This document shows, piece by piece, positions 1,387 through 52,252 of a DNA stretch of 64,000 nucleotides. The position numbers were made by a program, and so were the translations under genes. The number at the start of each line of letters is the position of its first letter. The stretch's first letter is position 1. The stretch lies in contig NZ_JABTEZ010000002.1 of the NCBI RefSeq assembly GCF_015711605.1, positions 1,736,001 to 1,800,000 on the forward strand, in the 5' to 3' direction. This DNA is from Planomonospora sp. ID67723. Lineage in GTDB: Bacteria > Actinomycetota > Actinomycetes > Streptosporangiales > Streptosporangiaceae. A model generated the notes under the pieces. The model saw only the letters and a list, made by a program, of their open reading frames with translations, searched no databases and was not told where the DNA came from.

Positions 1387-2622
1387 ATGCAGCCACCATC
1401 CGTGCGCGACACCGTCCAACAGGCCACGGTGGGACGGGGCTCCCTCGGCTGGCGGGATCCGCTGTTCCTGGCGTCCAGGCCAAGCGGCGAGCGTGTACGC
1501 CGGTTCGTGGCGATGCTGCTGATGTTGCAGCGGCTCAGCTACCTGCTGCCCGCGTGCGCGAGCCTGTTCGCCGGTGAGGCGCTCTTCTCCGCCCGCGGTC
1601 GCAACGCGGTGCTGCTGGCGCTGGCCCTGGCCTGGAACGTGACGTTGTTCCGCTGGGTCGCGCGGCGCGGATGGTTCACGCCGCAGGCCGTGGTGATCGA
1701 TGTCCTGGCCACCTGCGCCTTCATGATCGGAGTGACCGATGCGTGCCTGCCCGGGTCGGGTACGTGCGTGACCAACTGGTCCTCGCACGCCCTGCTGGCG
1801 ACGGGAGCGCTGATCGGCGCGGTCAGCGAGCGCCCCCTCCAGTTCGCCGCCCTGCTGCCGCCGATCGGGGTCTACGCGATCGCGCACGCCGACGACCTCG
1901 GCCAGCGCTTCCCGCCCATGCTGGAGCTGGCCGTGCGGGTCAACGGCTACGTCTGGTTCGCGGTCATCGTCTTCTTCATCCGCCGCTACCTGGCCGCCCA
2001 GGCCGCGCGACTGGACGTCCTGGCGGATCAGCGACGGGCGGCCGAGGCCGAACAGGCCGCGGAGCAGGCCAGGCTGGCGCACTACCGGCAGTTGCACGAC
2101 ACGGTCCTGGCCACGCTGACCGCGATCGCCCGGGGAGGGCTGGACCACCACACGGAGGAGGTGCGGCGGCGGTGCGCGGCCGACGCGGCCTACGTCCGGG
2201 CGCTGATCGGACAAGACGCCGCGGGCCCCGCCACCGGGCTGGGCAACGCCTTGACCCGCGTCGTGGCCAGGGCGGCGGGGCTGGGGTTGTGCGTGCGCTA
2301 CGCCGCCGAGGCGCTGCCCGAGGACCTGCCGGCCGGTGTGGCGGCGGCCATGGCGGAGGCCGGCGCGGAGGCGCTCAACAACGTGGTCCGGCACTCCGGA
2401 GAGCGGGAGGCCTGGCTCACCGCCGTCGAGGTGGACGGCGTGGTCACCGTCCGTGTGGTCGACCGCGGCCAGGGCTTCGATCCCGGCGGGGTCGAGCCCG
2501 GCTACGGGTTGCGCTCCTCGGTCATCGGGCGCATGCGCGAGATCGGCGGAAGCGCGGAGATCATCACGGCTCCCGGCGAGGGGGTGTGCGTAGAGCTCAC
2601 GTGGCCAGACCGTCCTCTCTGA
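1387..2622 (+). CDS. Membrane sensor histidine kinase (HisKA_3/NarL type)
   Basis: 411 residues. The N-terminal half holds about six hydrophobic segments (roughly residues 40-210, ending YVWFAVIVFFIRRYL), with no large extracellular domain, so it probably senses in or near the membrane. A linker coiled coil leads to LAHYRQLHDTVLATL, where H237 is the likely phosphorylated histidine of the HisKA_3 dimerisation helix. The C-terminal HATPase domain shows the N-box-like AEALNNVVRHS, the G1 motif DRGQGFDP and GYGLRSSVIGRM. The gene runs toward the response regulator on the opposite strand and their 3' ends overlap by 26 bp, so the two are probably partners even though not co-transcribed. The nearby lanthipeptide operon is the obvious candidate target. 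Confidence 0.88.
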   Translation: MQPPSVRDTVQQATVGRGSLGWRDPLFLASRPSGERVRRFVAMLLMLQRLSYLLPACASLFAGEALFSARGRNAVLLALALAWNVTLFRWVARRGWFTPQAVVIDVLATCAFMIGVTDACLPGSGTCVTNWSSHALLATGALIGAVSERPLQFAALLPPIGVYAIAHADDLGQRFPPMLELAVRVNGYVWFAVIVFFIRRYLAAQAARLDVLADQRRAAEAEQAAEQARLAHYRQLHDTVLATLTAIARGGLDHHTEEVRRRCAADAAYVRALIGQDAAGPATGLGNALTRVVARAAGLGLCVRYAAEALPEDLPAGVAAAMAEAGAEALNNVVRHSGEREAWLTAVEVDGVVTVRVVDRGQGFDPGGVEPGYGLRSSVIGRMREIGGSAEIITAPGEGVCVELTWPDRPL

Positions 2623-3238
2623 CGCGGGTGGCGAGCTCCAGCTTGGTGTAGGCGGGACGGCCCGCCTTCCGGTACTTGTCCTTGACGCGCTCCAGGTAGT
2701 TCTTGGCGGTTCCCGGCTGCACCCCGGCGCTGCGGGCCGCCGCGCTGAGCGTCATGCCGGAAGCGTAGGCGAGCAGCACCGCACGCTCCTGCGGAGACAG
2801 AACGGGCCGATCGTCGTTGCGATCGGCCAGCCAGCCCAGCGCCAGCTCGGGGGAGACGGCCACCTCCTCCTTCGCCACCTCCCTGACTTTCGCCACCAGA
2901 GCCGCCAGGTCGTGGTCCTTGGTGAGGTACCCGCCCGCTCCCGCGTCGATCATCTGCCTGGCCATGTCGCCCGAGGTCACCACGCTGACCACGATCACCC
3001 GCCGCCGCAGCCGCGCCAGCGTGCGCACGTTGTCCACGGGGTCGGAGCGGTCGGCCAGCAGCAGGTCGAGCAGTACCACGTCGGCCGGTGACGGCTCCGT
3101 TTCGAGCAACTCGGCGACAGTGGCGGCCGAGGCGGTCAGCCGTACGTCGGGCACGCCGGCCAGCCAGGCGGCCAGCCCTTCGATGAGCATCCGGTCGTCG
3201 TCCACTACAGAAACGGTGATCACGTCTGTCTTTCCCAT
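2597..3238 (-). CDS. LuxR/NarL-type response regulator
   Basis: Receiver domain: acidic pocket VVDDDRM (residues 11-17), phospho-acceptor D58 in DVVLLDLLL, switch threonine in VVTSGD and K107 in GYLTKD. The C-terminal LuxR-type helix-turn-helix follows, from LSPQERAVLLAYASGMTLS through AGVQPGTAKNYLERVKDKY. The ATG at 3238 is taken as start; a TTG three codons upstream is the alternative. The gene overlaps the kinase gene at their 3' ends and diverges from the lanthipeptide precursor gene with under 100 bp between them. It is therefore well placed to control that operon. Its partner is inferred to be the kinase at 1387-2622. Confidence 0.88.
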   Translation of the reverse strand: MGKTDVITVSVVDDDRMLIEGLAAWLAGVPDVRLTASAATVAELLETEPSPADVVLLDLLLADRSDPVDNVRTLARLRRRVIVVSVVTSGDMARQMIDAGAGGYLTKDHDLAALVAKVREVAKEEVAVSPELALGWLADRNDDRPVLSPQERAVLLAYASGMTLSAAARSAGVQPGTAKNYLERVKDKYRKAGRPAYTKLELATRVREDGLAT

Positions 3239-3280
3239 ATCCGGCAATTCATGTCAAGTGCGCAGTTATGGCGGCTACCG

Positions 3281-3295: not shown

Positions 3296-3331
3296 GTGGA
3301 TCATGGCGCCAAGTCCGAGAAGGGAGCAAGC

Positions 3332-3520
3332 ATGACCGTCACGCTCGAGAGGGCCGAGGAGATCATCGCCGCCTGGAGGTCGGGCGACGAGCCGGACAGC
3401 CCGGTCGGCCCGGTGCTGCCCGGCATGTACGTCGAGTCCGAGATCACGATGACCGGGCCGGGTTACTCCGGCCGCTGCGGGACCGCCTGCTCGGGCTCCC
3501 GAACCTACATGTGCTGCTGA
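3332..3520 (+). CDS. lanA: Class II lanthipeptide precursor peptide
   Basis: 62 residues, starting at ATG 3332 behind AGAAGGGAG. Longer readings from upstream are not supported by a ribosome binding site. The N-terminal leader is acidic and helical (LERAEEIIAAWRSGDE). The C-terminal ~25 residues hold all four cysteines (C49, C53, C61, C62) and several possible dehydration sites (T39, T41, S46, T51, S54, S56, T58), as expected of a lanthipeptide core with up to four thioether rings. The peptide ends in two adjacent cysteines. LanM begins 15 bp downstream, which fixes the function. There is no double-glycine cleavage motif, so the leader/core junction is unclear. I do not recognise the core as a known lantibiotic; it lacks the CTxTxEC motif of mersacidin-type peptides. 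Confidence 0.85.
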   Translation: MTVTLERAEEIIAAWRSGDEPDSPVGPVLPGMYVESEITMTGPGYSGRCGTACSGSRTYMCC

Positions 3521-3535
3521 GAGGGGCCGAAACGC

Positions 3536-6373
3536 ATGGCCGGTGAGTTCGACCCTCCGCTGGACCCGCTGATCGGACCAGCCCTGGCCGACCTGGAGGC
3601 CCGGCTGGGGTCGCTCACCGGCCTCGCCCCGTCCGAGCGCGGTGCCGTCCTGGCGGGAGCCGCGCTGTCCGTCGAGGAGGACGTCCGCCGCAAGATCACC
3701 AGGGTGCTGGTGCTGGAGCTGAACGCCGCCCGGCTGTCCGGTCGGCTGACCGCCCCCGACCCCGCCGCCCGCTGGGAGGAATGGAAACGGAGCGTCGCCG
3801 AACCGGCGTTCTGGGACGGTCTGGCGGTGCCGTACCCCACCATGATGCCCAGGCTGGCGACGGCGATCCGCAACCGGTGCGAGGCCGCCGCGCGCTTCGC
3901 CGAACGCTTCGCCGCCGACCGCGGAGCGCTGGCCACGCTCCCGGGAGCGCCGTCCGGCGCGCTGGAACGCGTCGAGTTCGGCGCCGGGGACAGCCACCGG
4001 GGCGGGCAGACAGTCGTCGTGCTGCACGCCGCGGACGGCCGGGTGGTCTACAAGCCGCGCTCGCTGGCGGTGGACGCGGAACTCGCCGGGCTGCTCACCC
4101 ACCTCGGCGACTCCACCATGCGCGTGCCCGCGGTGGTGACCGGGCAGGGGTACGGCTGGGCCGAGCACATCGAGCACCGCCACTGCGCCGGAGCCGGAGA
4201 ACTGCGCGCCTTCTACCGCGGCATGGGCCACTGGCTGGCGCTCATGCGCCTGCTCGGCGGCAGCGACCTGCACGCCGAGAACCTCATCGCCGCCGGACCG
4301 CACCCCGTGGTCGTCGACTGCGAGAGCCTGTTCGCCCCACACGCCAAAGCCCGCCCCTCGGGGTACGGCCAGGCCGTCGACCTGGCCGTGGAACTGGTGG
4401 ACACCTCGGTGATGCGCACCGGGCTGCTCCCCGGACGGGGGGTGGCCCTGGGATGGCGGGGCGTGGACATGTCGGGGGCGGGCGCGCTTCCCGGCCAGCA
4501 GCCGCAGGTCGAGCTGCCGGTGGTGCTCGGCGCGGGCACCGACAGCCCCCGGATGGGCACCGAGCGGGTGGAACTGCCCCTGGCGGCCAACCATCCCAGC
4601 CCCGAACCGGTGCTCGGCCGCTACTGGGACGTGATCATCACCGGGTTCGACGAGCTCGACGACCGGCTGGCCGAACTGGACCGGTCCGGCAAGCTGGAGC
4701 CGCTGCTGGCGGGCTTCGCCGACTGCCCGGTCCGCGCGGTGCTGCGCTCCACCGAGTCGTACGCCGAGCTGGGCCGCATGCTCTGGCATCCCGCCGCCCT
4801 CCACGACGAGGCGCCCGCCCGCGCGAAGGCCGCCGCGCTGCTGGCCAAGATGTCGGAGAACGTGCCGGGGGCCCCCGGCGACCCCGCCATCATCGCCGCC
4901 GAAGTGGAGGAGCTGTGTCACGGTGACATCCCGATGTTCGACACCACCCCGCGCGTCGGCATGTTGCGCGGCCCCGCCGACACCAGGTGCGGCCCGGAGA
5001 ACGATCTGATCGCCGACGCCGTGGCCCGCTGGCGGGCGCGCGACCACGGCCTGGACCGCCGGGTGGCCCAGGCGGCCCTGGTCAGCGCCTACCTCAACGA
5101 GGGCTGGATGCCGGAGGACGCGCGGCTCTCACCCGGCCTGATCCGTACCGAGCGCCTGGAGCCCCGGCGGCGCGCGGCGGCGGCCGCAATCATGCGCGGC
5201 GTCCTGGACGGCGCCGTGCGCGGCGCGGACGGCACGGTCACCTGGATCACGCCCGTGCTCAACCCCACCGGCTGGGCCGTGCAGCCGCTCTCGCCCGACC
5301 TGTACGGCGGAGCCCACGGCGTGGCGTTCCTGCTGGCCGCCTACATCGGCGAGGCCGCGGACGGCAGGGCCGAGCCGGTCGGGGAACTGCCCGGCCTGCT
5401 GGAGGCGGTCCTGCGCACCATACGCCGCATGGAGGACCGCGACGCCGCCAAGCGGCAGGAGGCCATGCGGGTGCGGCCGGAGCCGCCCGGCGCCTACCTG
5501 GGGATCGCCTCGCAGGCGTGGGGCTGGCTGCTGCTGCGCGCCTTCGGCGTGGCCGGTCAGGAGGCGCTGGAACGCGCCCGCGTGCTGGCCGGACTGCTCC
5601 CGGAGTCGATCGAGGCCGACGACAACTACGACCTGCTCTCCGGGATGGCGGGGGCGATCGTCCCACTGCTGCGGCTGAGCCGGGAGACCGGGGAAGCGCA
5701 GTGGGCCGAACTGGCCCGATCGGTCGGGGTACGCCTGGCAGGGCTGGCGGAGCGCCGCTCCGGCGGGGTCTGCTGGCCCAGCCCGCGCTTCCCGCAGGGG
5801 CTCGGCGGGCTGGCCCATGGCGCGACCGGCATCGGCTGGGCCCTGGCGCGGCTGGCGGAATCCCCCGACGGCTCCGAGGAGATGCGGGAGCTCGCCGAGG
5901 CGGCCTTCGCCTACGAGGACTCCCTCTACGACCCGGACCAGCGCGGCTGGCTGGACCTGCGCAACGACGGCTTCGCCGCCAAAGCATGGTGCCATGGCGC
6001 GGGCGGGATCGGGATCGTCGCCGCCGACCGGCTGGCCCGTGAGGGCGGCGCCCACTGGCGCGACCGGCTGGCGCGCGCCGCCGCCTCCTGCTGGGCCGAC
6101 GGCGTCGGCTGGAACCACACGCTCTGCCACGGCGACCTCGGCTGCTGGGAGACGATCGAACAGGCTCGGGCGGCCGGGGTCGCGCCGGTGGAGCGGGAGC
6201 TGCTGGAGGCCCGCATCCTGGGCAGCCTGGAAGTCAACGGCCCGGTCAGCGGCCTGGCCAGAGACGCCTTCGCGCCGGGCCTGCTACCCGGTCTGGGCGG
6301 GGTGGCCTACCAGTTGCTGCGCATGCACCCGGAGTGTGCACTGCCCTCCGTCCTGCTCCCGGACCTGGAGTGA
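3536..6373 (+). CDS. lanM: Class II lanthipeptide synthetase LanM
   Basis: 945 residues, slightly shorter than the usual ~1000. The N-terminal DUF4135 dehydratase domain shows the kinase-like signatures VVYKPRSLAVD, GGSDLHAENLIAAGPHPVVVDCESLF and the activation region; it phosphorylates Ser/Thr of the precursor with ATP and eliminates phosphate. The C-terminal LanC-like cyclase domain begins around PLSPDLYGGAHGVAFLLAAY and carries the zinc ligands C819 (KAWCHGAGG), C864 and H865 (LCHGDLGCW), which activate cysteine thiols for ring closure. All key residues are present, so the enzyme looks functional. It follows the precursor gene after 15 bp, with GAGAGGGGC as ribosome binding site, and its TGA overlaps the GTG of the exporter gene. 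Confidence 0.97.
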   Translation: MAGEFDPPLDPLIGPALADLEARLGSLTGLAPSERGAVLAGAALSVEEDVRRKITRVLVLELNAARLSGRLTAPDPAARWEEWKRSVAEPAFWDGLAVPYPTMMPRLATAIRNRCEAAARFAERFAADRGALATLPGAPSGALERVEFGAGDSHRGGQTVVVLHAADGRVVYKPRSLAVDAELAGLLTHLGDSTMRVPAVVTGQGYGWAEHIEHRHCAGAGELRAFYRGMGHWLALMRLLGGSDLHAENLIAAGPHPVVVDCESLFAPHAKARPSGYGQAVDLAVELVDTSVMRTGLLPGRGVALGWRGVDMSGAGALPGQQPQVELPVVLGAGTDSPRMGTERVELPLAANHPSPEPVLGRYWDVIITGFDELDDRLAELDRSGKLEPLLAGFADCPVRAVLRSTESYAELGRMLWHPAALHDEAPARAKAAALLAKMSENVPGAPGDPAIIAAEVEELCHGDIPMFDTTPRVGMLRGPADTRCGPENDLIADAVARWRARDHGLDRRVAQAALVSAYLNEGWMPEDARLSPGLIRTERLEPRRRAAAAAIMRGVLDGAVRGADGTVTWITPVLNPTGWAVQPLSPDLYGGAHGVAFLLAAYIGEAADGRAEPVGELPGLLEAVLRTIRRMEDRDAAKRQEAMRVRPEPPGAYLGIASQAWGWLLLRAFGVAGQEALERARVLAGLLPESIEADDNYDLLSGMAGAIVPLLRLSRETGEAQWAELARSVGVRLAGLAERRSGGVCWPSPRFPQGLGGLAHGATGIGWALARLAESPDGSEEMRELAEAAFAYEDSLYDPDQRGWLDLRNDGFAAKAWCHGAGGIGIVAADRLAREGGAHWRDRLARAAASCWADGVGWNHTLCHGDLGCWETIEQARAAGVAPVERELLEARILGSLEVNGPVSGLARDAFAPGLLPGLGGVAYQLLRMHPECALPSVLLPDLE

Positions 6374-8238
6374 AGCCGGTGGAAGAGGAGGTGGAGGAGC
6401 TCGCCACCCCCTACTGGCACCTGGACCGGCCGGACGGGCCCCGGCGCACGCTGCGGCGGCTGCCCGCGCTCACCGCGCCGGTGCTGCGGCTCATCTGGGA
6501 GAGCGGGCGGCGGCCCGCGTTCGTCATCCTCGTCCTCCAGCTCGCCGCGGGCGCCGCGACGGCCAGCGGGCTGCTGGCGACCACGGCGGTGCTGGAAGAT
6601 CTGCTGGCCTCGGGAGCGGCTTCCGACCGGCTCCTGGCGGCGGTGCCCGGCCTGGCCCTGGTCGCCGCGATCGTGGCCCTGCGCGGCGCGGCGGAGGCGG
6701 CGGTGGAGCTGGCCAGGGCGCGGCTGGAGCCCGCGCTGCGGCGGGCGGCGGAGGAGCGGCTGTTCACCGCCGCCCTCGGCGTGCAGCTCGCCGACTTCGA
6801 CGACGTGGACTTCTACGACGGCCTGCACCGGGCACGCGACCGTGGGCTGTTCCACCTCGACCGTTCGGCGGGCAACACCATCGACCTGCTCGGCGCCGCC
6901 TGCGGGGTGACGGCGGCGGCGGCCGGGCTGGCCGTCCTGCACCCGCTGCTGGTGCCGCTGCTCGTGGTCAGCGTGATCCCGGAGGCGTGGGCGGTGCTGA
7001 AGGCCGCGCAGCTCGGGTACGCGGGCATGAGGAGCATGGTCACGCTGAACCGCCGGGTGGACCAGCTCGCCGAGCTGGCCACCGAGCGGGAACCGGCGGG
7101 CGAGCTGCGGGCCTGCCAGGCCCAGCCGTACGTGCTGGCCGAGTACCGCCGGGCGGCGGACGTGCTGAGGGCGGAGGAGACACGGGTCGGGCTGTCCATG
7201 GCGCGGATCAAGGCCGCGGGCCGCGCCGCGGGCGGCCTGGCCATGGCGGGGGTGCTGGCCGGCCTCGGGCTGATGCTGCACTCCGGCTGGATCGTGCTGG
7301 CCGCGGCGGGCACCGCGGTGATCGCCGTCAGGGTGGCGGCCGCGTCGCTGCGGCAGCTCGCCCAGGCCGCCAACCAGCTGTTCGAGCAGGCGCTGTACGT
7401 CGCCGACTACCACGACTTCCTCGCCGACGCCGAGGCCAGGAGACCGCCGGCGGGCGGTACGGCGGCGCCGCGCTCCCCCGAGCGCATCACCCTGCACGGC
7501 GTCGGCTTCACCTATCCGGGCAGCCGGAGCCCCGCACTGCGGGAGATCGACCTGACCATCCACGCGGGCCAGACGATCGCGCTCGTCGGCGAGAACGGCT
7601 CGGGCAAGACCACGCTGGCCAGGCTGCTGGCCGGTCTCTACCGGCCCACCGGCGGCACCATGCGGTGGGACGGGCTCGACACCGCCGATCTGGACCCGGA
7701 CACCGTGGCCGACCGCGTGGTCCTGGTGCCGCAGTACCCGGTCCGCTGGCCGCACGACGTCAGGACCAACGTGCGCATGGGCCGCCACGACCGCCCGGAC
7801 CCGGGAGACCGCGTCCTGCACGAGGCCGCCGCGCTCGCCGCGGCCGACGATGTCGTCGCCGGCCTGCCCGCCGGATGGCGCACCCTGCTGTCCAAGCAGT
7901 TCAGGGGCGGTCACGAGCTGTCGGCGGGGCAGTGGCAACGCCTGGCCGTGGCCCGCGGGCTCTTCCGCGACGGGCCCCTGCTGATCTGGGACGAGCCGAC
8001 CGCGCCGCTGGACGCCAAGGCGGAGTACGCCGTCTACGAGACGCTCCGCAAGATCGCGGGGGAGCGGACCGTCCTGCTCATCACGCACCGGCTGACGAGC
8101 GTACGGCACGCCGACCGCATCTACCTGCTGCACCGGGGGCGCATCGCCGAGGAGGGCACGCACGAGGAACTGCTGGCGCTGCGGGGACGCTACGCCGAGC
8201 TGTACGCGCTGCAGACCGGGAAGGCGGCCCGCCGGTGA
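6370..8238 (+). CDS. lanT: ABC exporter (membrane plus ATPase), no C39 peptidase domain
   Basis: About 622 residues. The start is GTG 6370, whose last two bases plus the next A are the LanM stop (GTGA), indicating translational coupling. An N-terminal ABC exporter membrane domain of about six helices is followed by an ATPase domain with Walker A LVGENGSGKTTLARLL, Q-loop VLVPQYPVRW, signature LSAGQWQRLAVARGL, Walker B LLIWDEPTAPLD and switch histidine in LLITHRLTS. There is no N-terminal C39 peptidase domain, so it cannot remove the leader itself. It most likely exports the modified peptide as a homodimer, with the leader cut by a protease coded elsewhere. It ends in another GTGA overlap with the flavoprotein gene. 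Confidence 0.92.
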   Translation: MKPVEEEVEELATPYWHLDRPDGPRRTLRRLPALTAPVLRLIWESGRRPAFVILVLQLAAGAATASGLLATTAVLEDLLASGAASDRLLAAVPGLALVAAIVALRGAAEAAVELARARLEPALRRAAEERLFTAALGVQLADFDDVDFYDGLHRARDRGLFHLDRSAGNTIDLLGAACGVTAAAAGLAVLHPLLVPLLVVSVIPEAWAVLKAAQLGYAGMRSMVTLNRRVDQLAELATEREPAGELRACQAQPYVLAEYRRAADVLRAEETRVGLSMARIKAAGRAAGGLAMAGVLAGLGLMLHSGWIVLAAAGTAVIAVRVAAASLRQLAQAANQLFEQALYVADYHDFLADAEARRPPAGGTAAPRSPERITLHGVGFTYPGSRSPALREIDLTIHAGQTIALVGENGSGKTTLARLLAGLYRPTGGTMRWDGLDTADLDPDTVADRVVLVPQYPVRWPHDVRTNVRMGRHDRPDPGDRVLHEAAALAAADDVVAGLPAGWRTLLSKQFRGGHELSAGQWQRLAVARGLFRDGPLLIWDEPTAPLDAKAEYAVYETLRKIAGERTVLLITHRLTSVRHADRIYLLHRGRIAEEGTHEELLALRGRYAELYALQTGKAARR

Positions 8239-9578
8239 CGGGCCCGCGCATGATCCACCCCGACGAGCCGGGCTACCAGGCCAGGCGCAAGGCCTTCCTC
8301 GGTACGCTCGCCGAGGAACTGCCCGTCGCCGTTGCCTGCTGCGCCTCGGAGGCGGACGTGGTGAGTGCCCTGGAGCTCGCCCGCGCCCGCGGTCTGCCGT
8401 TCGCCCTGCGCGGCGGCGGCCACAGCTTCGCCGAGCACTCCTCCACGACGGGGCTGCTCGTCGACCTCGGCGCGATGAAGACGATCGAGGTCGGCGCGGA
8501 GAGCGTGCGGGTGGGCCCCGGCGTGCAGATCGGTGAGCTGGCCCGGCGCCTGGCCGAGCACGGGCGCATGGTGCCCTGCGGCTGGTGCCCCACGGTCGGC
8601 GTGGCCGGAGCGGTGCTGGGCGGCGGATACGGCCCGTTCAGCCGCCTGTACGGGCTCGGCGCCGACCACCTGCTGGCGGCGCGCGCAGTCCTGGCCGACG
8701 GGCGGAGCGTCGAGGCGGGAGACGATCTGCTGTGGGCGCTGCGCGGGGCCGGCGGCGGCAACTTCGGCGTGGTCACGCAGCTGACGCTGCGCACCCGGCC
8801 CATCGTGCCGATCACCGCCGTCCAGGCGGTCTGCGACTTCGGCCGCGCCGCCGATCTCGTCGACGCGTGGCAGCACTGGGCACCCGAAGCGCCGGACGAG
8901 GTCAACCTGGAGATCGCCGTCGTCTCCGGTGACGAGCCCGGAGAACCGCCCTACGCCGTGCTCTTCGGCATCGTCGCCGGGCCGGAGGAGTGGGCCGGGA
9001 AGCTGGTCGGCGACCTCGCGCCGCTGGACCGCCTCCGGCTCACCCGCCTGGAGGGCGCCGCGGCCGCCTGCCACCACGCCTACGCCGACGGCGGGGAGGG
9101 CGCCGTCACGGCGCTGCCGTACGGCGAGCGGCCCGGGCTCCGCCTGAACAAGTCGGGCTTCTTCGACGGGTATCTGCCCCGGGTGGTCATCGAGGACCTG
9201 CTGGGGCGGCTGGTCGCCGACCGCGTCCGCGGCGAGATCCGGGATCTGGAGTTCGTGCCCTGGGCGGGCGCGATCGCCCGTGTCGCCCCCGACGCGAGCG
9301 CCTTCGTCCACCGCACCCCGCGCTTTCTGCTCAAGCAGGCCGTCCAGGTGGGATTCCGCGCCACGGACAGCCGCAGACGGGACGCGCACGCATGGCTGTG
9401 CGGGGCGTGGGCGCGGCTGTCGCCGTGGGCCTCCGGGGCCGTCTACCCGAACTACCCCGACGCCGACCTGGAGGACTGGGCGCAGGCGTACTACGGGAGC
9501 AACCTGCCGAGACTGCGGGAGGTGAAGGCCGCCTACGACCCCGCCGGCCTGTTCCGCTTCGCCCAGTCCCTGCGCTGA
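8235..9578 (+). CDS. Berberine-bridge-type FAD-dependent oxidoreductase, likely lanthipeptide tailoring
   Basis: 447 residues from GTG 8235, which overlaps the exporter stop (GTGA). The reading frame stays open far upstream but that part is a shadow of LanM and the exporter. The FAD_binding_4 (PCMH) fold is clear: RGGGHSFAEHSS with H63, and CGWCPTVGVAG with C118, the two residues that carry bicovalent FAD in this family; then GGGYGPFSRLYGLGAD. The C-terminal BBE domain ends YPNYPDADLEDWAQAYYG and VKAAYDPAGLFRFAQS. Such enzymes oxidise C-H, C-OH or C-N bonds using O2. Its coupling to lanM and lanT argues that it acts on the lanthipeptide, but the modification is unknown. It shows no signal peptide, so it would act in the cytoplasm. 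Confidence 0.9.
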   Translation: MTGPRMIHPDEPGYQARRKAFLGTLAEELPVAVACCASEADVVSALELARARGLPFALRGGGHSFAEHSSTTGLLVDLGAMKTIEVGAESVRVGPGVQIGELARRLAEHGRMVPCGWCPTVGVAGAVLGGGYGPFSRLYGLGADHLLAARAVLADGRSVEAGDDLLWALRGAGGGNFGVVTQLTLRTRPIVPITAVQAVCDFGRAADLVDAWQHWAPEAPDEVNLEIAVVSGDEPGEPPYAVLFGIVAGPEEWAGKLVGDLAPLDRLRLTRLEGAAAACHHAYADGGEGAVTALPYGERPGLRLNKSGFFDGYLPRVVIEDLLGRLVADRVRGEIRDLEFVPWAGAIARVAPDASAFVHRTPRFLLKQAVQVGFRATDSRRRDAHAWLCGAWARLSPWASGAVYPNYPDADLEDWAQAYYGSNLPRLREVKAAYDPAGLFRFAQSLR

Positions 9579-9651: not shown

Positions 9652-12024
9652 TCAGGCCGCCTGCCGCCAGGGCGCGGTGTGCAGCAGGCCGTCGATCTGG
9701 TGGGCGGTTGCAGGGGGTGAGAACAGGTACCCCTGCGCCATCGGGCAGCCCAGTTGCTGCAGCAGCACGGCCTGCTCGCGCGTCTCGACGCCTTCGGCGA
9801 CGGTGCTCAGGCCCAGACTCGCCGACAACTCCACGATGGCCTTGACGAAGGCGAGCATCTGCTGGTGATCGGTGTGGCCGGACGCCGGGACGAAGGATTT
9901 GTCGATCTTCAGGATGTCGACGGGCAGGGTGCGCAGGTACGACAGCGAGGAGTACCCGGTGCCGAAGTCGTCCAGGGCGATGCGCACCCCGTGCTCGCGC
10001 AACCGGGTCAGGCAGGCGATGATGCGGATCGTCTCGGCCGGGGTGGTGGCCAGCAGCATGCTTTCGGTGATCTCCAGGATGAGTGCCCGCGCGGGCAGGC
10101 CGTGCCGGGCCAGGATGTCCAGGACCAGGTCGCTGAAGTTCTCCTCGCGCAGCTGGCGGCCGGAGACGTTGACGGTGACGGTGACGCCGTACCGGGTGTG
10201 CCAGCGGCGGGCGTCGGCGACGGCCTGCTCCAGCGCCCACCGGCCGATGGCGACGATCAGCCCCGTCTCCTCGGCGATGGGAATGAACACATCCGGCGGC
10301 ACCGGCCGCTCGCCGGGAGGTCTCCAGCGCAGCAGCGCCTCCACCTTGTGGATGTCGCCGGAGGCCAGGTCGACGACCGGCTGGTACTCCAGGGTGAGTT
10401 CGCCGCCGGCCAGTGCCTGGCGCAGGCCGTCGGTCAGCTGGACGCGCTGCAGGCGGGCCTGGCGCAACTCCTGCGTGAAGAGCGTGATCTGGTTCTTGCC
10501 GGCGTTCTTGGCCGCGTACAGGGCCAGGTCCGCATCGCGCAGGGCCTGCGACGGAGTGGCGACGGCCAGGCCGGCCAGCACGCCGATGCTGGTGGTCACA
10601 TGCAACTGCAGGCCGTCCACACGGTACGGCGCCTGCATGACGGACAGGATGCGCCGGGCCAGGGCGAGCGCCTCGTCCGCACCGGCTCCGGGCAGGATGA
10701 CGGCGAACTCGTCCCCGCCGAGCCGGGCCAGCAGCCGGCCGTCGCCGATGACCGCCTGCAGCCTCGTGGCGGCCTGGGTGATCAGCGCGTCGCCGATGGG
10801 GTGGCCGAAGGTGTCGTTGACGTCTTTGAAGCCGTCCAGATCCAGCAGCAGCAGTGCGGGCGGGCACGCACCGGGGGTGGCGGCGCCGACGGTGATGGAG
10901 TGCTGCAGGGCCTCGCCCAGCAGGGTCCGGTTGGCCAGGCCGGTCAGCGGGTCGTGCAGGGCGTTGTGCGACAGGCTGCGCCGGAGGATCTCCTGCCGGT
11001 ACAGGGCGGCGCCCAGGTCGGCGGCGTGCTCTTCCGCCAGGCGGGCGACGATGGCCAGACGCAGGATCAGCAGCACGGCCAGCAGCACGGTGAATGCGAT
11101 GATCACCATGCCGTCGTGGAGGTTCCCTGCCCCGGCGGGGCCGGCGAGCATCTGGCCCAGACCGGAGATCAGCGGGCTGAGCAGTGCCAGCGCCAGGAAC
11201 ACGGTCACCCGCGCCCGGCTGGAGACGACCGGGGCCCGCAACCGGGCGGCGCCGGCCGCGCTGGGATGCAGCACCGCGCTGCCCACCAGCACCGACCAGC
11301 CCAGCCAGCCGGCCATGGACAGAGAGTCGTAGGGGCGGCCCGCCGCCACATCGAGCAGGTAGGCGCCGTCGGCGAAGAACAGGGCGAGGAAGGAGGCACC
11401 GAGCAGCACCAGCCAGGGGGCGCGGCCGTTGTCCAGGGCCAGCCGCATCGCGAGGCCGACGGTGAACAGGTCGAGGACGGGGATGATCAGGTGGAAGGCG
11501 AGGTCAACGCCCGTGTGCGCGCTGTGGTCGAGGGCCGGGTCGATGAACAGCGACCACATCGGCATGGCCACGCCGACGGTGATGATGCCGGCGTCCAGCA
11601 GCGCCGTGCTGCGCGCTCCCGGAGCCCGCATGTTCAGCATGATCAGGGCGCTCAGCGACAGGCCGTAGGCGACCACGATGGAGACGTTGTAGAGGTCCAG
11701 GAAGAATCCGATCCCCAGCCCGATCCAGCCGATGCCCCACGCCAGCGTGACCGCCAGCCCGCTGACCGCGACAGCACCACCGATCAGGCGCCAGGGCCAG
11801 GACCGGGTCAGGCCGTGGCGGCGGATGGCGATTGCGACGGCCACCGTGGTGGCGCCCTGCACCAGAGCCCAGGCCAGTACATCGGTGACCGGTGACAGGC
11901 CCAGCGAAAACGAGGCGACAACCACCAGCAGTCCTCCGGCCAGTAGATAGACCAGCCAGCTGCGGGGATGGCAGATACGAGGAGAGGGGGCGGAGACGAG
12001 CACCGCCGACGCGACTCGGTTCAT
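9652..12024 (-). CDS. Membrane GGDEF-EAL protein (diguanylate cyclase/phosphodiesterase)
   Basis: 790 residues from ATG 12024, which has GAGGGAGAG just upstream; the open frame extends to 12159 without support. The N-terminal ~300 residues hold eight or more hydrophobic helices (for example LVYLLAGGLLVVVASFSLGL). A GGDEF domain follows with an intact RLGGDEFAVIL (residues 434-444) and no RxxD inhibitory site at the usual position. The EAL domain has E562-A-L plus DDFGTGYSSLSYL and LKIDKSFV, so both the c-di-GMP making and breaking sites look intact. In streptomycetes such proteins set c-di-GMP levels that control development; that role here is by analogy. It is convergent with the lanthipeptide operon and downstream of the NUDIX gene on the same strand. 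Confidence 0.93.
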   Translation of the reverse strand: MNRVASAVLVSAPSPRICHPRSWLVYLLAGGLLVVVASFSLGLSPVTDVLAWALVQGATTVAVAIAIRRHGLTRSWPWRLIGGAVAVSGLAVTLAWGIGWIGLGIGFFLDLYNVSIVVAYGLSLSALIMLNMRAPGARSTALLDAGIITVGVAMPMWSLFIDPALDHSAHTGVDLAFHLIIPVLDLFTVGLAMRLALDNGRAPWLVLLGASFLALFFADGAYLLDVAAGRPYDSLSMAGWLGWSVLVGSAVLHPSAAGAARLRAPVVSSRARVTVFLALALLSPLISGLGQMLAGPAGAGNLHDGMVIIAFTVLLAVLLILRLAIVARLAEEHAADLGAALYRQEILRRSLSHNALHDPLTGLANRTLLGEALQHSITVGAATPGACPPALLLLDLDGFKDVNDTFGHPIGDALITQAATRLQAVIGDGRLLARLGGDEFAVILPGAGADEALALARRILSVMQAPYRVDGLQLHVTTSIGVLAGLAVATPSQALRDADLALYAAKNAGKNQITLFTQELRQARLQRVQLTDGLRQALAGGELTLEYQPVVDLASGDIHKVEALLRWRPPGERPVPPDVFIPIAEETGLIVAIGRWALEQAVADARRWHTRYGVTVTVNVSGRQLREENFSDLVLDILARHGLPARALILEITESMLLATTPAETIRIIACLTRLREHGVRIALDDFGTGYSSLSYLRTLPVDILKIDKSFVPASGHTDHQQMLAFVKAIVELSASLGLSTVAEGVETREQAVLLQQLGCPMAQGYLFSPPATAHQIDGLLHTAPWRQAA

Positions 12025-12268
12025 CTCTCCCTCTCTTCGCCGGTGTGCCGATGATCGGTCAAAGCGCACCATCGGCGCGTTTTTGCCTATCATGAGCGTT
12101 TTGCGGATATTCGGTCCTTTGTGAATCGTGGCGAGGTCGGGGCGTGGGCGAAGGATCACGATTCCGTCGCGTCAGCGGATCGGGGAGGGCGGCTCGGCCT
12201 CCATCGGCAGCGCGTCACCGGCCTGGCCGACCGGAGTGTCGTTCGGGAACCCGGGCTTCGTCGGCGCG

Positions 12269-34228: not shown

Positions 34229-37200
34229 ATGAAGACGATGTTCGGTGACGGTTTCGCGCTGCCTCTGACCGGAGCGCAGACGGGAATCTGGCTGGCCCAG
34301 CAGATCGAGCCGGACAGCCCGGCCTACACCATCGGCTGCTACGTCGAGCTTCCCGGACCCGTCCGGGGACGGGCGGACACCGCCACCGAACGGCAGGCGC
34401 CCGACGTGTCCCGGCTGGCCGCCGCGGTGCGCCGTGCCGTACGGGAGGCCGAGCCCCTGCACGCGGTCTTCGTCGAAGACGGAGGGAAGCCCGCCCAGGT
34501 GCTCCGCGCGCCCGGTGACTGGTCACCCGCGGTGGTGGACCTGGCGGAAGAGGCCGATCCGGAGGCGGCGGCCCGCGCCTGGATGGACGCCGACCTCGCC
34601 TCGGCCGGCCGCGCGACCGATCTCGCCCGCGGTCCCCTGTTCGCGCACGCACTGCTGGATCTGGGCGAGCGCGGCCTGTGGTGGTACCAGCGCTACCACC
34701 ACCTGCTCACCGACGGGTTCGGGATCCTGCAGCTCATCCACCGCACCGCCGAGCTGTACGGCTCGGGGCCCGAGGAGGGCGCGGCGCTCGCGCAGGACTG
34801 GTCCCTGAGCAGCCTGGTGGCCGGTGACACGGACTACCGCGGCTCGGCCCGGCACGCGGCCGACCGCGGCTTCTGGCACGAGCGGCTCGCCGGCCTGCCC
34901 GCCGAGCCCGCCCGGCTGGTGGAGTGCCCGCCCGCGCAGGCGGCCCGGACCCGGCGGCGCACCGCGGAGCTGTCCGCCGAGCGCACCGAGCGGCTGCGCG
35001 AGGCCGCCGCCTCCGCCGGGACCCGCCTGTCGCGCCTGGCCATCGCCGCCGTGGCGGCCTACCTGCACCGGGTCACCGGCGAGCAGGACGTGGTGCTCGG
35101 CCTGCCGGTGACCGCCCGTCTGGACCCCGAGCTGAAATACACCCCCGGCATGGTGTCCAACGTCCTGCCGCTGCGGCTGACGGTGCGGCCCGGCACGACG
35201 CCCGCGCAGCTCGTCCAGGACATCGCCGGGCGGGTCCGCGAGCTGGGCGAGCACGCGCGCTACCGCGGGGAGGACCTGGCCAGGGAACTGGGGCGTGCCG
35301 AGGGCCTGCGCGCCCTCATCGGTCCCACCGTCAACGTCATGCCGTTCCACGGGGAGATCCGGTTCGGTGACCTGTCCGGCACCGTCCACTACCTGTCCCT
35401 CGGCCCGGTCGGCGACCTGTCCGTCGCCGTCTACGACCGGCCCGCCGGGCAGGGCCTGCGCATCGACCTCGACGCCGACGCCGATGTGTGCGACCCCGAC
35501 GAGCTCGCCCGGCACGAACGGCGCCTCCTGTCGGTGCTGGAGGCGATGGCCGCCCATCCGGACCGGCCGCTGGGCTCGATCGACCTGGCCTCCGCCGACG
35601 AGCGCGAGCTGGTGCTCACCCGGTTCGCCGGCACGCAGCCGGAGGTCCGGGAACTGTCGTGGACCGCGGCGTTCGAGCAGCGGGCGGCCCGTACTCCGGA
35701 CGCGACCGCCCTGGTCTGCGAGGCGCAGCGGCTGTCGTACGCGGAGCTCAACGGCCGCGCCAACCGCCTGGCGCGGCTGCTGCGCCGCAGCGGGGTGACC
35801 ACCGAGGACGTCGTCGCGGTCGCCGTGCCGCGCTCGGCCGACATGGTCGTCGCGCTGCTCGGCGTGATGAAGGCGGGCGCCGCCTACCTCCCCCTCGACT
35901 CCGACCACCCGGCCGACCGCATCACGTACATGGTCGAGGACGCGCGGGCGCGTGCCGTCGTCTCCGTGACCGCCCTCGCCGGCGACCTTCCCGACTTCCC
36001 CGAGTCCGCCGTGCCCCGCCTGCTGCTGGACGACCCCGCCGTCACCGCGGAGCTGGCCGCGCTGGAGGACGCCGACCTCGCCGAGGCGGCCGGCCCGGAG
36101 CTGGACCGGGCCGCCTACGTCATCTACACCTCGGGATCGACCGGACGCCCCAAGGGAGTGGTGGTCTCCCACGACGGCATCGGCAGCCTCATCGCCACCG
36201 CCGCCGAGCGGCTCGGTGTGGACGCCGCCAGCCGCGTCGTGCAGTTCGCGTCGGTCGGCTTCGACGTGGCCGTCTGGGATCTGGTCATGTCCCTGTGCGT
36301 GGGCGGTACCGTCATCGTCGTCCCGGCCGAGCGCCGCGTCGCCGGCCACGAGCTGACCGACTATCTCGCCGAGCACCGCGCGACCCACATGATCCTGCCG
36401 CCGTCGCTGGTGGCCGCGCTGCCCGCCGACTGCGAACTGCCCGCCGGGGGGGTGCTCGTGGTGGGCACCGAGGCCGTCCCGGCCGAACTGATCGCCCGCT
36501 GGGGACGGCGGATGCAGGTGGTGGTGGCGTACGGCCTGACCGAGGCGACCGTCAACTCCACGCTCTGGCTCGCCGACCCCGACCAGCCCGGTCCGGTCCC
36601 GATCGGGGTGCCGGACCCGGGCACCCGCTGCTACGTGCTCGACTCCGCGCTGCGGCCCGTGCCGCCCGGCACCGTGGGCGAGCTGTACGTCGCCGGCCGC
36701 GGCCTGGCGCGCGGCTACCTCGGCCGGCATGGCCTGACCGCCGAGCGCTTCGTCGCCGACCCGTTCGGCGCGCCGGGATCGCGCATGTACCGCACCGGCG
36801 ACCGGGCCCGCTGGCGCGCCGACGGCAACCTCGACTTCCTCGGCCGCGAGGACGGCCAGCTCAAGATCCGGGGCCACCGCATCGAGCCCGGTGAGATCGA
36901 GAGCGCCCTGATGGCCCATCCCGCCGTCGCGCAGGCGGCGGTCGTCGCCCGCGAGGACCACCGCGGCGTCAAGCGGCTCGTGGCCTATGTGACGGAAACA
37001 CACGTGACGGGAACCGACGCCGGAGGCGTCGACGTGGCGGAGGTGCGGAGCCTGGTGGCGGGCTCGCTCCCGGACCACATGGTGCCCGGCACGATCGTGG
37101 TGCTGGACGGGGTGCTCCCGCTGACCCCGAACGGCAAGCTGGACAAGAAGGCCCTGCCGGAGCCGGAGTGGACCGCGCAGGCGGGCGGCGCCGCCCCGTC

Positions 37201-40200
37201 CACCCCCGCCGAGCGCGTCCTCGCGGAGCTGTTCGCCGAGCTGCTCGGGCTGCCCGCGGTGGGCGTCCAGGACAGCTTCTTCGAGCTCGGCGGCGACAGC
37301 ATCGTCGCGATCCAGCTGGTGAACCGGGCCCGTCGCGCCGGGCTGGTCATCACCCCCCGTGACGTCTTCCGGCTCCGGACCGTCGCCGCGCTCGCCCGCG
37401 AACGGGCCGGTCAGGCCCCGGAGCAGGTTCACGACCCCGGCGTCGGCACCGCGCCGGCGACCCCGATCGTCCATTGGCTGCGCGAGCGCGCGGAGACCGG
37501 CGGGCCGATCGACGGCTTCTACCAGGCCGTGACACTGCAGGTTCCGGCGGACCTCACTGCCGAGGTGCTAGCCGCCACCCTGCAGGCCGTACTCGACCAC
37601 CACGGAATGCTGCGCGCCCGGCTGGTGCGGGCCGATGACTGGGCCCTGGAGGTCCCGCCGCCGGGCACGGTCCGGGCGGCCGACCTCCTGGAGCGGGTCG
37701 AGATCGGCGCGAGTGCCCTCCCCGCTACGAACACCCCGCACGAGACGAACCTTTCGGACGGTGCGGACATCCTGAACGAGGTGATCGCCGAGCACCGCCG
37801 CCGGGCCGTGGGCCGGCTGGCCCCCGACGACGGCCGGATGCTCCAGGCGGTCTGGCTCGACGCCGGGCGGCACGCCCCCGGACGGCTGGTTCTGGTCGCC
37901 CACCACCTCGTCGTCGACGGGGTGTCCTGGCGCATCCTGCTGGCCGATCTCGCCCAGGCCGCCGAGGCCCTCGCCGCCGGGCAGCCGGTCGCCCTGCCGC
38001 CGGTCGGCACCTCCTTCCCGCGCTGGTCGCGGATGCTGGCCGCGGACGCGCTGACCGCCTCCCGCCGGGCCGAGCTGGAGACCTGGCAGGACCTGCTCCG
38101 CGAGCCCGCCCCGGCACTCGGCCTGCGTCCGCTGGACCCGGCGGCCGACACGGCGGCGAGCGAGCGTTCGCTGACGGTGTCGCTGTCCGGCGACCAGACC
38201 GCCCCGCTGCTCGCCGACCTCCCCGCCGCCTACCACGGCACGGTCAACGACGTTCTGCTGACCGCGCTCGCCGTCGCCGTCGCCCGCTGGCGTCATGACC
38301 GCCCGAGCGGCTCCGGCTCGGATCCCGGCCCGGGTGCGGGCCGGGGACTCCTGCTGGAGCTGGAGGGCCACGGGCGCGAGCAGGACGACCTGGCGGGCGG
38401 GGCCGACCTGTCCCGCACCGTGGGCTGGTTCACCAGCGTCTTCCCCGTCCGGATCGACGCCGACGACGTCGACTGGGAGCAGTTCCGGGCCGGCGGGCCC
38501 GCCGCCGGTCGCGCGCTCAAGCAGGTGAAGGAGCAGTTGCGGGCCCTGCCCGGGGCCGGCCTGGGCTACGGGCAGCTGCGCCACCTGAACGAGGAGACGG
38601 CGGGTGCGCTGGCCGCTGCGCCGCAGCCGCAGCTGCTCTTCAACTACCTGGGCCGCTTCCGGGCGGGCGAGAGCGGGGACTGGCGGCTCGCCGGCGACAC
38701 CGAGCCGCTGACGGCCGGCCGCGACCCGGGGATGCCGTCGGGGCACCCGCTGGAGATCAACGCGATCGTCCGCGACGGGGCCGCGGGACCGGAGCTCAGC
38801 GCGACCTGGTCGTGGCCGGAGGGGGTCCTCGACCACTCCGGCGTCGCCGAGCTGGCCGGCCTCTGGCTGGAGGCGCTGCGGGGACTCACCGCGCACCTGT
38901 CCGGCCCGGACGCGGGAGGGCACACCCCCTCGGACTTCCCCCTGGTGGAGATCGGGCAGGACGAGATCGACGAGCTGGAGGCGGCCCCGCACGGACTGCG
39001 GGACGTCCTTCCGGTCACGCCGCTCCAGCAGGGGTTGTTCTTCCACGCGCTCTTCGACGAGGACGCCTCCGACGTCTACACCGTCCAGCAGGTCATCGAG
39101 CTGACCGGAGCCGTCGACGGCTCGGCGGGCGGCGCCCTGCACCGCGCGGTGCGGGGACTGCTGGAGCGGCACCCGCTCCTGGGCGCCGGGTTCCGGCAGC
39201 GGCCCGACGGGCGGGTCGTGCAGTTCCTCCCCGACGCGGTGACCGTGCCGTGGCAGGAGATCGACGCGCCGGACACGGGCGACGAAACGGTCCAGGCCGT
39301 CGCGGAGGAGGAGCGGGCCCACCGGTTCGATCTGGCCGCGCCGCCGCTGGTGCGTGCCGCATTCGTCCGCGGCGCGGACCGCCACCGGCTGATCCTCACG
39401 CTGCACCACCTGGTCGCCGACGGCTGGTCAGTGCCGATCATGCTGCGTGACCTCCTCGCCGGGTACGCGACCGGAGAGACGGCGGTCGACGCTCTCCCCG
39501 CGGTCTCGCTCTGCCGCGAATACTTCTCCTGGCTGAGGGACCGTGACCGGGAGGCGGCACGCGAGGCCTGGCGGCGGGCGCTGTCCGGGCTGGAGGAGCC
39601 GACCCTGCTGGCGCGGGCCGGGCGCGAGGCCGTACCCGGACGTGAGGCCGCTCCCGGGCCGATCGGGCAGGTTCGCGCCGAGCTCACCGAGGAGCTGACC
39701 GCAGGGTTGACCGCCTGGGCGCGGACGCGCGGGCTGACGCTGGGCACCGTCATCCAGGGCGCCTGGGGACTGCTGGCCGGCCGCCTCACCGGCCGCCGTG
39801 ACATCGTGTTCGGCACCACCGTCTCCGGCCGCCAGGCCGCCGTCGAGGGCGTCGAGTCGATGGTGGGCCTGCTGGTCAACACGTTGCCGGTGCGGGTGAC
39901 GTGGCGGCCGGACGAGCGCCCGGCCGACCTGCTGGCCCGGTTGCAGGACGCCCAGGCGGACCTGCTCGACCACCAGCACCTCGGGCTGGCGGAGATCCAG
40001 CGGCTGGCCGGGTTCACCGACCCGGACGCGCGGAGCCTGTTCGACACCCTCGTGGTGATCGAGAACTATCCCGTCACCGGGGACCTGCGCGCTCCCGGCG
40101 GCGCCTTCGAGATCACCGGGGTCGACGTCCGCGACGCCTCCCACTATCCCCTCTCCCTCACCGTGGTGCCCGGGGACCGGCTGGACCTGCGGCTCGACTA

Positions 40201-49200: not shown

Positions 49201-50044
49201 GAACACCCCGGCCTGGAGCGAGCTGCCGGTGGGCTACGCCGACTACACGTCGTGGGCGCACGAGCTGCTCGGCGGGGTCGCCGACCGGCAGCTCGGCTAC
49301 TGGCGGGAGACCCTGCGCGGGCTGCCCCTCGACCCAGCGCTGCCGTACGACCGGCCGCGCGGGCAGGGTCCCGGCGGGGCCGGTGAGCCCGGTGGACGCG
49401 GCGACCACGTCGATCTCGTGCTGGACCCGGTCCTGCACGCCGCCGTCGACGACCTCGCCGCGCGGACGGGCACCAGCATGTTCATGGTGCTCCAGGCGGC
49501 GCTGGCGACCCTGCTCACCCGGCACGGGGCCGGGACGGACCTGCCGATCGCCTCGCTGGTCGCGGGCCGTACCGAGGAGGCGCTCACCGACCTGGTCGGA
49601 TGCTTCTTCAACACGGTCATCCTGCGCACCGACACCTCGGGCGAGCCGACCTTCCGCGAGCTGCTCGCGCGCATCCGGGAGGCCGACCTCGCCGCGCTCG
49701 ACCGGCAGGACGTCCCCTTCGCCCGGGTTGCGCGGGAGCTCGGCCTGCCCGCGCCGCGGGTGATGCTGGTCCACCACGAGCAGGCGCGGATGGCGGAGAT
49801 GGAGGACATCGGGGCGGCGTTCGAACCGGTCCCGACCGGGGCGCTCAACGCCGATCTGACGCTCAGCTTCTTCGAACCGCGCGGCGACGGACCGGTGGAC
49901 TGCCTGCTGGAGTACGACACCGGCCTGTTCGACCGGGACACGATCCGGCAGCTCGCGGACGATCTGGTCCGCATCCTGAAGACGGCGGTGGCCGATCCCG
50001 ACCGGCCGCCCATCCACGACGACCACAGGAGGAACGACTCATGA
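34229..50044 (+). CDS. Tetramodular hydroxamate-siderophore NRPS, C-A-T-E-C-A-T-C-A-T-C-A-T-C
   Basis: 5271 residues, one uninterrupted frame. Catalytic marks: C1 HHLLTDG (H157/H158); A1 [11 protein letters not shown] from 633; T1 Ser1024; E HHLVVDG (H1225/H1226); C2 HHLVADG (H1726/H1727); A2 from 2209; T2 Ser2614; C3 HHLILWDG (H2825/H2826, one extra residue); A3 from 3301; T3 Ser3704; C4 HHITTDE (H3888/H3889); A4 from 4373; T4 Ser4761; C5 HYIGVDE (H4965, Y4966). No thioesterase or reductase follows C5. By-eye specificity codes: A1 DVWIVGAVNK, A2 DAWDFGCVQK, A3 DMENLGLINK, A4 DVFILGAVNK. The A3 code is the established one for N5-hydroxyornithine or its formyl form. A1 and A4 resemble each other and may both take formyl-hydroxyornithine; A2 is unassigned. 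Expected product: D-X1-X2-hOrn-X4, perhaps released as a diketopiperazine. Iron-controlled from 32996. Confidence 0.96.
41336..41365 (+). repeat. 15-bp tandem duplication inside NRPS A2
   Basis: CAGCCCGAGTCGCAG occurs twice in tandem (41336-41350 and 41351-41365), adding [10 protein letters not shown] between the YGPTE region and the following conserved strand of A2. Being a multiple of three it keeps the frame; it lies in an expected surface loop. Confidence 0.9.
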
Positions 50045-52237: not shown

Positions 52238-52252
52238 CGGATCCTCCCGGGC

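What the first reader, a model, noticed from the sequence alone, without database searches (positions are those of the whole stretch)
3332..9578. Compact lanthipeptide operon with an unfamiliar core peptide
A 62-residue precursor, LanM, exporter and flavoprotein form a tight unit with two GTGA overlaps. The core has four cysteines, ends in Cys-Cys and lacks the CTxTxEC motif of mersacidin-type peptides; I cannot match it to a known lantibiotic. This is a candidate new lanthipeptide.
Basis: partly seen in the sequence, partly recalled or inferred. Interest (0 to 1): 0.75.

Follow-up and report, generated by a model that had tools for sequence, protein, structure and literature searches.

The report
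Lanthipeptide operon with conserved flavin oxidase
A soil actinobacterium carries a compact gene set for a ring-containing peptide whose leader belongs to an already recognised but little-studied lanthipeptide family, and the unusual part is a berberine-bridge-type flavin oxidase that travels with it in about a dozen relatives.

Summary
Confirmed: a 62-aa precursor (3332-3520), LanM (3536-6373), ABC exporter (6370-8238) and FAD oxidase (8235-9578), with two GTGA overlaps. The conserved cassette also holds a divergent regulator and a sensor kinase (1387-3247). The claim that it matches nothing known is half right: the precursor scores 68.9 bits for Pfam DUF6229, shown in 2022 to contain class II lanthipeptide precursors (rhodanocin, PMC9576775). 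Its core is not rhodanocin's. The oxidase was seen in 13 of 38 stretches. All 19 precursors beside it, and L025's (contig ends too early to tell), fit [ST]xxCG[ST]xC[ST]xSx(2-6)CC; 3 of 30 other DUF6229 precursors do. All six genes look purifying-selected, and LanM has every tested catalytic residue. Best reading: a four-ring class II lanthipeptide tailored by a bicovalent-FAD oxidase whose reaction is unknown; two searches found no such enzyme reported for a lanthipeptide. New variant of a known kind. In passing: two Nonomuraea genomes fuse this leader to cysteine-free (NTRxx)n repeats beside LanMs that lost zinc-ligand cysteines.

The parts
1387..2622 (+). sensor histidine kinase of the cassette (MacS-like, below that model's cut-off)
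   Evidence: 76 bits to NF047322, cut-off 300; HATPase_c; a relative at this place in 12 of the 13 close loci besides none in L029, and none in L040; pN/pS 0.37 over 11 genomes
2597..3247 (-). response regulator, NarL/LuxR type, divergent from the operon (TTG start as listed; an ATG lies at 3238)
   Evidence: Response_reg; relatives 72.6-93.5% identical in the other close loci and 64.9% in L040; pN/pS 0.30
3253..3258 (+). GTCAAG, invariant in the regulator-precursor gap; possible operator element (inference)
   Evidence: invariant in 14 of 14 sequences aligned, the distant L040 included
3332..3520 (+). lanthipeptide precursor lanA, 62 aa, DUF6229
   Evidence: PF19740 68.9 bits, cut-off 25; translation; pN/pS 0.31
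3467..3517 (+). core motif S46-G-R-C49-G-T51-A-C53-S54-G-S56-R-T58-Y-M-C61-C62; predicted four rings (inference)
   Evidence: [ST]xxCG[ST]xC[ST]xSx(2-6)CC in 20 of 20 precursors of the cassette group (L025 included without a visible oxidase), 3 of 30 other DUF6229 precursors
3536..6373 (+). LanM, class II lanthionine synthetase
   Evidence: TIGR03897 518 bits, cut-off 304; DUF4135 and LANC_like; dehydratase residues and Zn triad C819, C864, H865 present
6370..8238 (+). ABC exporter, permease-ATPase, no C39 peptidase domain found
   Evidence: ABC_tran 98.8 bits and no peptidase C39 hit at E 0.1; GTGA overlap with lanM
8235..9578 (+). berberine-bridge-type FAD oxidase, both flavin-attachment residues present (H63, C118; roles recalled)
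   Evidence: FAD_binding_4 and BBE; flavin oxidases and EncM as nearest solved relatives; H63, C118, Y404, Y407 in 13 of 13

Best explanation
This is a class II lanthipeptide cassette of the DUF6229 family. The regulator pair controls lanA-lanM-exporter-oxidase. LanM binds the conserved leader, phosphorylates and dehydrates the conserved Ser/Thr (S46, T51, S54, S56, perhaps T58), and its zinc cyclase closes four thioether rings on C49, C53, C61 and C62. The bicovalently flavinylated oxidase, in which I see no signal peptide by eye, then oxidises the still-cytoplasmic peptide at one position. The exporter moves it out, and a protease not encoded in the cassette removes the leader. Shown by sequence: family memberships, catalytic residues, co-conservation and purifying selection. 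Inferred: ring number and topology, flavin attachment, the oxidase's substrate, the order of steps, the regulation and any antibacterial role.
For: PF19740 match and published dehydrations and rings on a DUF6229 precursor (PMC9576775). LanM over its curated cut-off, with nine tested dehydratase positions identical in 37 of 37 LanMs and the Zn triad in 35 of 37 including this one. Four Cys and four always-Ser/Thr positions in 20 of 20 cassette-group precursors, seven of them different precursors that share one LanM and one oxidase in L040. Oxidase seen in 13 of 38 stretches, each time after the exporter. In the distant L040, LanM (57.4%), exporter (57.7%) and oxidase (56.9%) are equally diverged from the window's, as expected of genes inherited as one unit. 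Oxidase pN/pS 0.38 over 12 genomes. In 10 genomes searched, a full-length oxidase over 50% identical occurs only in the two that have the cassette; other full-length matches reach at most 40%. None of seven flanking window proteins was found at E 1e-20 in the other 14 loci tested, so the shared unit runs from kinase to oxidase.
Against: No product, dehydration or ring has been measured here. L064 (G401) has the same core motif and a sister LanM but no exporter or oxidase in the 5.75 kb downstream of its LanM, and its genome holds no full-length oxidase match above 37%, so the oxidase is not needed for that core type. L038 and L075 also have the motif without a visible oxidase (L038's contig ends about 1 kb after LanM). 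No invariant residue unique to oxidase loci stands out as its substrate. No leader peptidase or immunity gene was recognised in the cassette.
Confidence: 0.72

Rival explanations
1. The flavoenzyme is a LanD substitute: it oxidatively decarboxylates the C-terminal Cys to give aminovinyl-cysteine, as in gallidermin, whose core also ends in Cys-Cys (recalled).
For: The C-terminal Cys-Cys is invariant in the group and a flavoenzyme closes the operon.
Against: It is FAD_binding_4 plus BBE, with no LanD-type flavoprotein family among its Pfam or NCBIfam hits. Cys-Cys also ends 28 of the 30 precursors outside the cassette group, whose fetched stretches gave no oxidase hit (some contigs are short), so the ending does not follow the enzyme.
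Confidence: 0.08
2. The oxidase does not act on the peptide: it makes or destroys a small molecule, or serves self-protection, and is co-transcribed only.
For: Many solved relatives are named as oxidases of small molecules or sugars; L064 lacks it with the same core.
Against: Overlapping start codon, same place in 13 loci, purifying selection and co-divergence with LanM in L040.
Confidence: 0.2
3. The precursor is a rhodanocin-type lanthipeptide with the same ring pattern.
For: Same DUF6229 leader family; both cores hold C-[ST]-x-S (C11-T12-x-S14 in rhodanocin by the positions given; C53-S54-x-S56 here).
Against: Rhodanocin has three rings on Cys8, Cys11 and Cys23; here there are four Cys, the first two four residues apart rather than three, and a C-terminal Cys-Cys.
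Confidence: 0.12

Closest known systems
Rhodanocin (LanII of Dyella sp. 333MFSha; DUF6229 class II lanthipeptide; PMC9576775, passages and section 15 read)
   Same: Leader family PF19740, LanM-made, C-[ST]-x-S in the core by the positions given
   Different: Three ring Cys against four Cys; different spacing; the terms FAD, flavin and berberine occur 0 times in its main text. I did not have its full sequence
DUF6229 lanthipeptides of Lysobacter (PMC11451712, passages read)
   Same: 21 of 27 unique class II precursors there are annotated DUF6229
Gallidermin, planosporicin and NAI-107 (recalled)
   Same: Core ends in Cys-Cys; planosporicin comes from Planomonospora
   Different: Those are class I (LanB/LanC) with a LanD decarboxylase; here LanM and a BBE-type oxidase
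Mersacidin/actagardine type (recalled)
   Same: Class II, LanM
   Different: No CTxTxEC motif
EncM and other BBE/VAO-type flavin oxidases
   Same: Nearest solved relatives by sequence
   Different: Cluster-specific: other full-length matches in the 10 genomes searched are at most 40% identical. It keeps His and Cys at the flavin-attachment places; the two EncM chains aligned have Val where the Cys is

Membership tests
Class II lanthipeptide system | LanM with DUF4135 dehydratase and LanC-like cyclase | tested here: met
   518 bits, cut-off 304; both Pfam domains
Class II lanthipeptide system | dehydratase catalytic residues and Zn triad present | tested here: met
   residue roles in CylM are recalled
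Class II lanthipeptide system | thioether rings in the product | not testable with these tools
   needs mass spectrometry
DUF6229 lanthipeptide precursors | score over the Pfam PF19740 cut-off | tested here: met
   68.9 against 25 bits
DUF6229 lanthipeptide precursors | encoded beside a LanM | tested here: met
   lanM starts after a 15-base gap
Rhodanocin | core with three ring Cys at 8, 11, 23 and Thr6, Thr12, Ser14 | tested here: not met
   positions from PMC9576775 against the core
Mersacidin type | CTxTxEC motif in the core | tested here: not met
AviCys-forming LanD | LanD-type flavoprotein family | tested here: not met
   only FAD_binding_4 and BBE hits at E 0.1
Berberine-bridge-type oxidase | FAD_binding_4 plus BBE domains | tested here: met
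   111.8 and 63.5 bits
Berberine-bridge-type oxidase | His and Cys flavin-attachment residues | tested here: met
   H63 and C118 in 13 of 13 cassette oxidases; their role is recalled
LanT with C39 leader peptidase | peptidase C39 domain on the exporter | tested here: not met
   no such hit at E 0.1

The most novel reading that the evidence does not exclude
The berberine-bridge-type oxidase carries out an oxidation on the LanM-modified peptide (for example dehydrogenation or an oxidative cross-link) that no known lanthipeptide carries, giving a four-ring, oxidised Cys-Cys-ended product, and one such enzyme tolerates at least seven different cores (L040).
Probability: 0.4. Interest if true: 0.62.

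Novelty: new variant of a known kind. Interest (0 to 1): 0.42.

Why it matters
DUF6229 lanthipeptides are recognised, but of those I found in print only rhodanocin has a solved ring pattern. This cassette defines a sharply conserved four-Cys subgroup in Planomonospora, Nonomuraea and one more (unnamed) genus, with a flavin oxidase of a type I could not find reported for lanthipeptides. It is small enough (about 6.2 kb without the regulators) to express whole, and the seven-precursor locus L040 offers a natural test of how much core variation LanM and the oxidase accept.

Tried and rejected
Tried without gain: NCBIfam gave no family for the precursor. Two Planomonospora literature searches gave 34 papers (20 listed) and 363 papers (12 listed); none of the listed titles or abstract starts concerns this cluster, and I opened none of them. 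Plasmid searches found only one record, a 39.5% Nonomuraea relative, for the precursor and no record covering 80% of the exporter-oxidase stretch. Four weak precursor-like hits elsewhere in the own genome (E 0.29-0.93) were not pursued. A search of 54 Nonomuraea genomes with the NTR-repeat precursor hit 15; only G276 and G275 match over its whole length. The other matches cover only part of it, mostly the repeat or the leader alone; I did not examine them one by one. Considered and rejected: precursor unrelated to anything known; AviCys formation by the flavoenzyme; rhodanocin ring pattern. No structure prediction or fold search was run, because the fold family was already clear from sequence.

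L025 was counted with the cassette group although its contig ends soon after LanM and no oxidase is visible. L029 and L040 gave no kinase hit. L072 is a short contig without a LanM hit. L081's LanM runs off its contig, so it is but not in the tree. L092 (another family) was not in the set; only its precursor was scanned. The ORF list leaves out frames that run off a contig end. Related genomes are not independent counts.
Full report
Observation. The precursor reads MTVTLERAEEIIAAWRSGDEPDSPVGPVLPGMYVESEITMTGPGYSGRCGTACSGSRTYMCC. Short ORFs are plentiful in this GC-rich DNA, so the case rests on homology and conservation, not on the ORF.

What the parts are. LanM scores 518 bits to TIGR03897, cut-off 304, with DUF4135 and LANC_like domains; the nearest solved relatives are LicM2 and CylM. 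The exporter is a permease-ATPase without a C39 peptidase hit. The flavoenzyme has FAD_binding_4 and BBE domains; its nearest solved sequences are flavin oxidases and EncM. The precursor has no NCBIfam match but is Pfam PF19740, DUF6229, at 68.9 bits, cut-off 25.

What is in print. Two papers in the library mention DUF6229. In PMC9576775 (passages; section 15) the Dyella DUF6229 precursor was modified with four dehydrations and three rings: Thr6-Cys11, Cys8-Ser14 (reversed) and Thr12-Cys23. The authors name rhodanocins and argue that DUF6229 holds at least two groups of lanthipeptides. In PMC11451712 (passages), 21 of 27 unique Lysobacter class II precursors are DUF6229. A search for 'lanthipeptide' with 'berberine bridge' gave one paper, on a Streptomyces genome, of which I saw only the listing and the start of its abstract. 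'Nonomuraea' with 'class II lanthipeptide' gave six, none of whose listings concerns this cluster. A search joining 'lanthipeptide', 'FAD-dependent oxidoreductase', 'class II' and 'actinobacteria' gave only PMC7268733, whose passages mention FAD-dependent oxidoreductases for class IV clusters and a luciferase-like flavoenzyme in a class II cluster, not a BBE-type one.

Distribution. PF19740 occurs in 9 of 198 near relatives, 36 of 341 genomes of the family and 5 of 394 genomes drawn across the class; these sets overlap. The same-genus genome G001 carries its hit on a 401,945-base contig, the length of the Planomonospora venezuelensis contig of L023, so the window is taken to be a Planomonospora.

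The conserved cassette. In a script over 38 stretches (window plus 37 loci) the order kinase, regulator, lanA, lanM, exporter, oxidase is complete in 11 (window, L023, L024, L026-L028, L030-L033, L083). L029 lacks a kinase hit. L025's contig ends soon after LanM. The oxidase is thus seen in 13 of 38. Five other loci (L073-L077) have a close exporter but gave no oxidase hit; three more (L035, L065, L080) had only ABC hits of 28-29% identity; the rest gave neither, and some of these contigs are short. L064 has kinase, regulator, precursor and LanM without exporter or oxidase in the 5.75 kb downstream, and no full-length oxidase match above 37% in its genome. None of seven flanking window proteins was found at E 1e-20 in the other 14 loci tested, which sets the unit's limits.

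Evolution. Mean pN/pS over 12 genomes (11 for the kinase) is 0.34 for LanM, 0.32 exporter, 0.38 oxidase, 0.30 regulator, 0.37 kinase and 0.31 lanA; within lanA, pN is 0.057 for residues 1-38 and 0.114 for 39-62. In the LanM tree (36 rows) the two Planomonospora nest among Nonomuraea: they share a 99/99-supported branch with L024, L025 and L029, inside a 13-row group with 100/100 support whose sister is L064; L040, which also has the oxidase, branches apart on a long branch of unsure place. So the oxidase is either older than this group and lost in others, or gained twice. Two upstream flank pieces of the P. venezuelensis copy match elsewhere in the window's genome, at 90% on contig C1 and at 89% about 0.45 Mb away on C2; its downstream flank has no match above 73% over any long stretch. 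One piece of the window's right flank matches at 93% on another contig of that relative. This fits a cassette that has been transferred and relocated; donor and direction are not proved.

Core and rings. All 20 cassette-group precursors fit [ST]xxCG[ST]xC[ST]xSx(2-6)CC; 3 of 30 others do (L064, L038, L075), and 28 of those 30 end in Cys-Cys. Thr58 is not conserved, so four Cys face four always-Ser/Thr positions. C53-S54-x-S56 lines up with rhodanocin's C11-T12-x-S14, which suggests, by inference only, rings S46-C53, C49-S56 (reversed), and S54 and T51 to C61/C62. A plain S46-C49 ring is an alternative.

Enzyme competence. Nine dehydratase positions known from CylM (recalled numbering) are identical in 37 of 37 LanMs; the zinc triad is intact in 35 of 37, this one included. 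The oxidase keeps H63, C118, Y404 and Y407 in 13 of 13; the first two are the recalled sites of double covalent flavin attachment.

Judgement. A class II lanthipeptide system is nearly certain. That the oxidase tailors the peptide is likely but not shown. It is not a LanD by family, and the Cys-Cys ending does not follow its presence. Leader removal is unexplained: the exporter has no peptidase domain and no protease was recognised in the cassette.

A side result of interest. In L080 and L081 (unnamed Nonomuraea-group genomes G276, G275) the DUF6229 leader (35.2 and 34.6 bits) is followed by 22 and 23 [NS]TR units, mostly five residues apart, without any Cys. The neighbouring LanMs keep all nine dehydratase residues but read Ala-Tyr where the other 35 have the first zinc Cys and its His neighbour, and L080 also has Ala for the second zinc Cys while keeping the zinc His (L081's contig ends before it). 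Cys-free substrate and lost zinc ligands agree: a dehydration-only system is the simplest reading. Synthetases with DUF4135 and an undefined zinc triad are known from computation (PMC11251773, passages), so the enzyme type has company; three term searches did not turn up the repeat substrate, which is a narrow test.

Noticed in passing
L080:9305-9826(-) with LanM 6214-9255(-); L081:8100-8678(+): DUF6229 leader fused to 22-23 cysteine-free [NS]TR repeats of about five residues, beside LanMs whose dehydratase residues are intact but whose zinc-ligand cysteines are lost; looks like a dehydration-only LanM system.
   Followed up: partly
L040:5435-7275(+): Seven different DUF6229 precursors in a row share one LanM, exporter and BBE-type oxidase, all keeping the four-Cys motif.
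   Followed up: partly
window 3253-3258 and 3300-3310: Invariant GTCAAG and a partly invariant ATCATGGCGCC-like stretch between regulator and lanA in the 14 cassette loci aligned; possible regulator site.
   Followed up: no
L074, L076, L077 precursors: DUF6229 precursors with a proline-rich stretch (CNPPPPP) before the CGTxC motif.
   Followed up: no
window 34229-50044(+): A 5,271-aa ORF with condensation, AMP-binding and carrier domains in both halves, i.e. a non-ribosomal peptide synthetase, followed by two ABC permease-ATPases on the other strand at 50402-53947(-).
   Followed up: no
window 9652-12159(-): GGDEF-EAL protein directly after the cassette, not found at E 1e-20 in the 14 other loci tested.
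   Followed up: no
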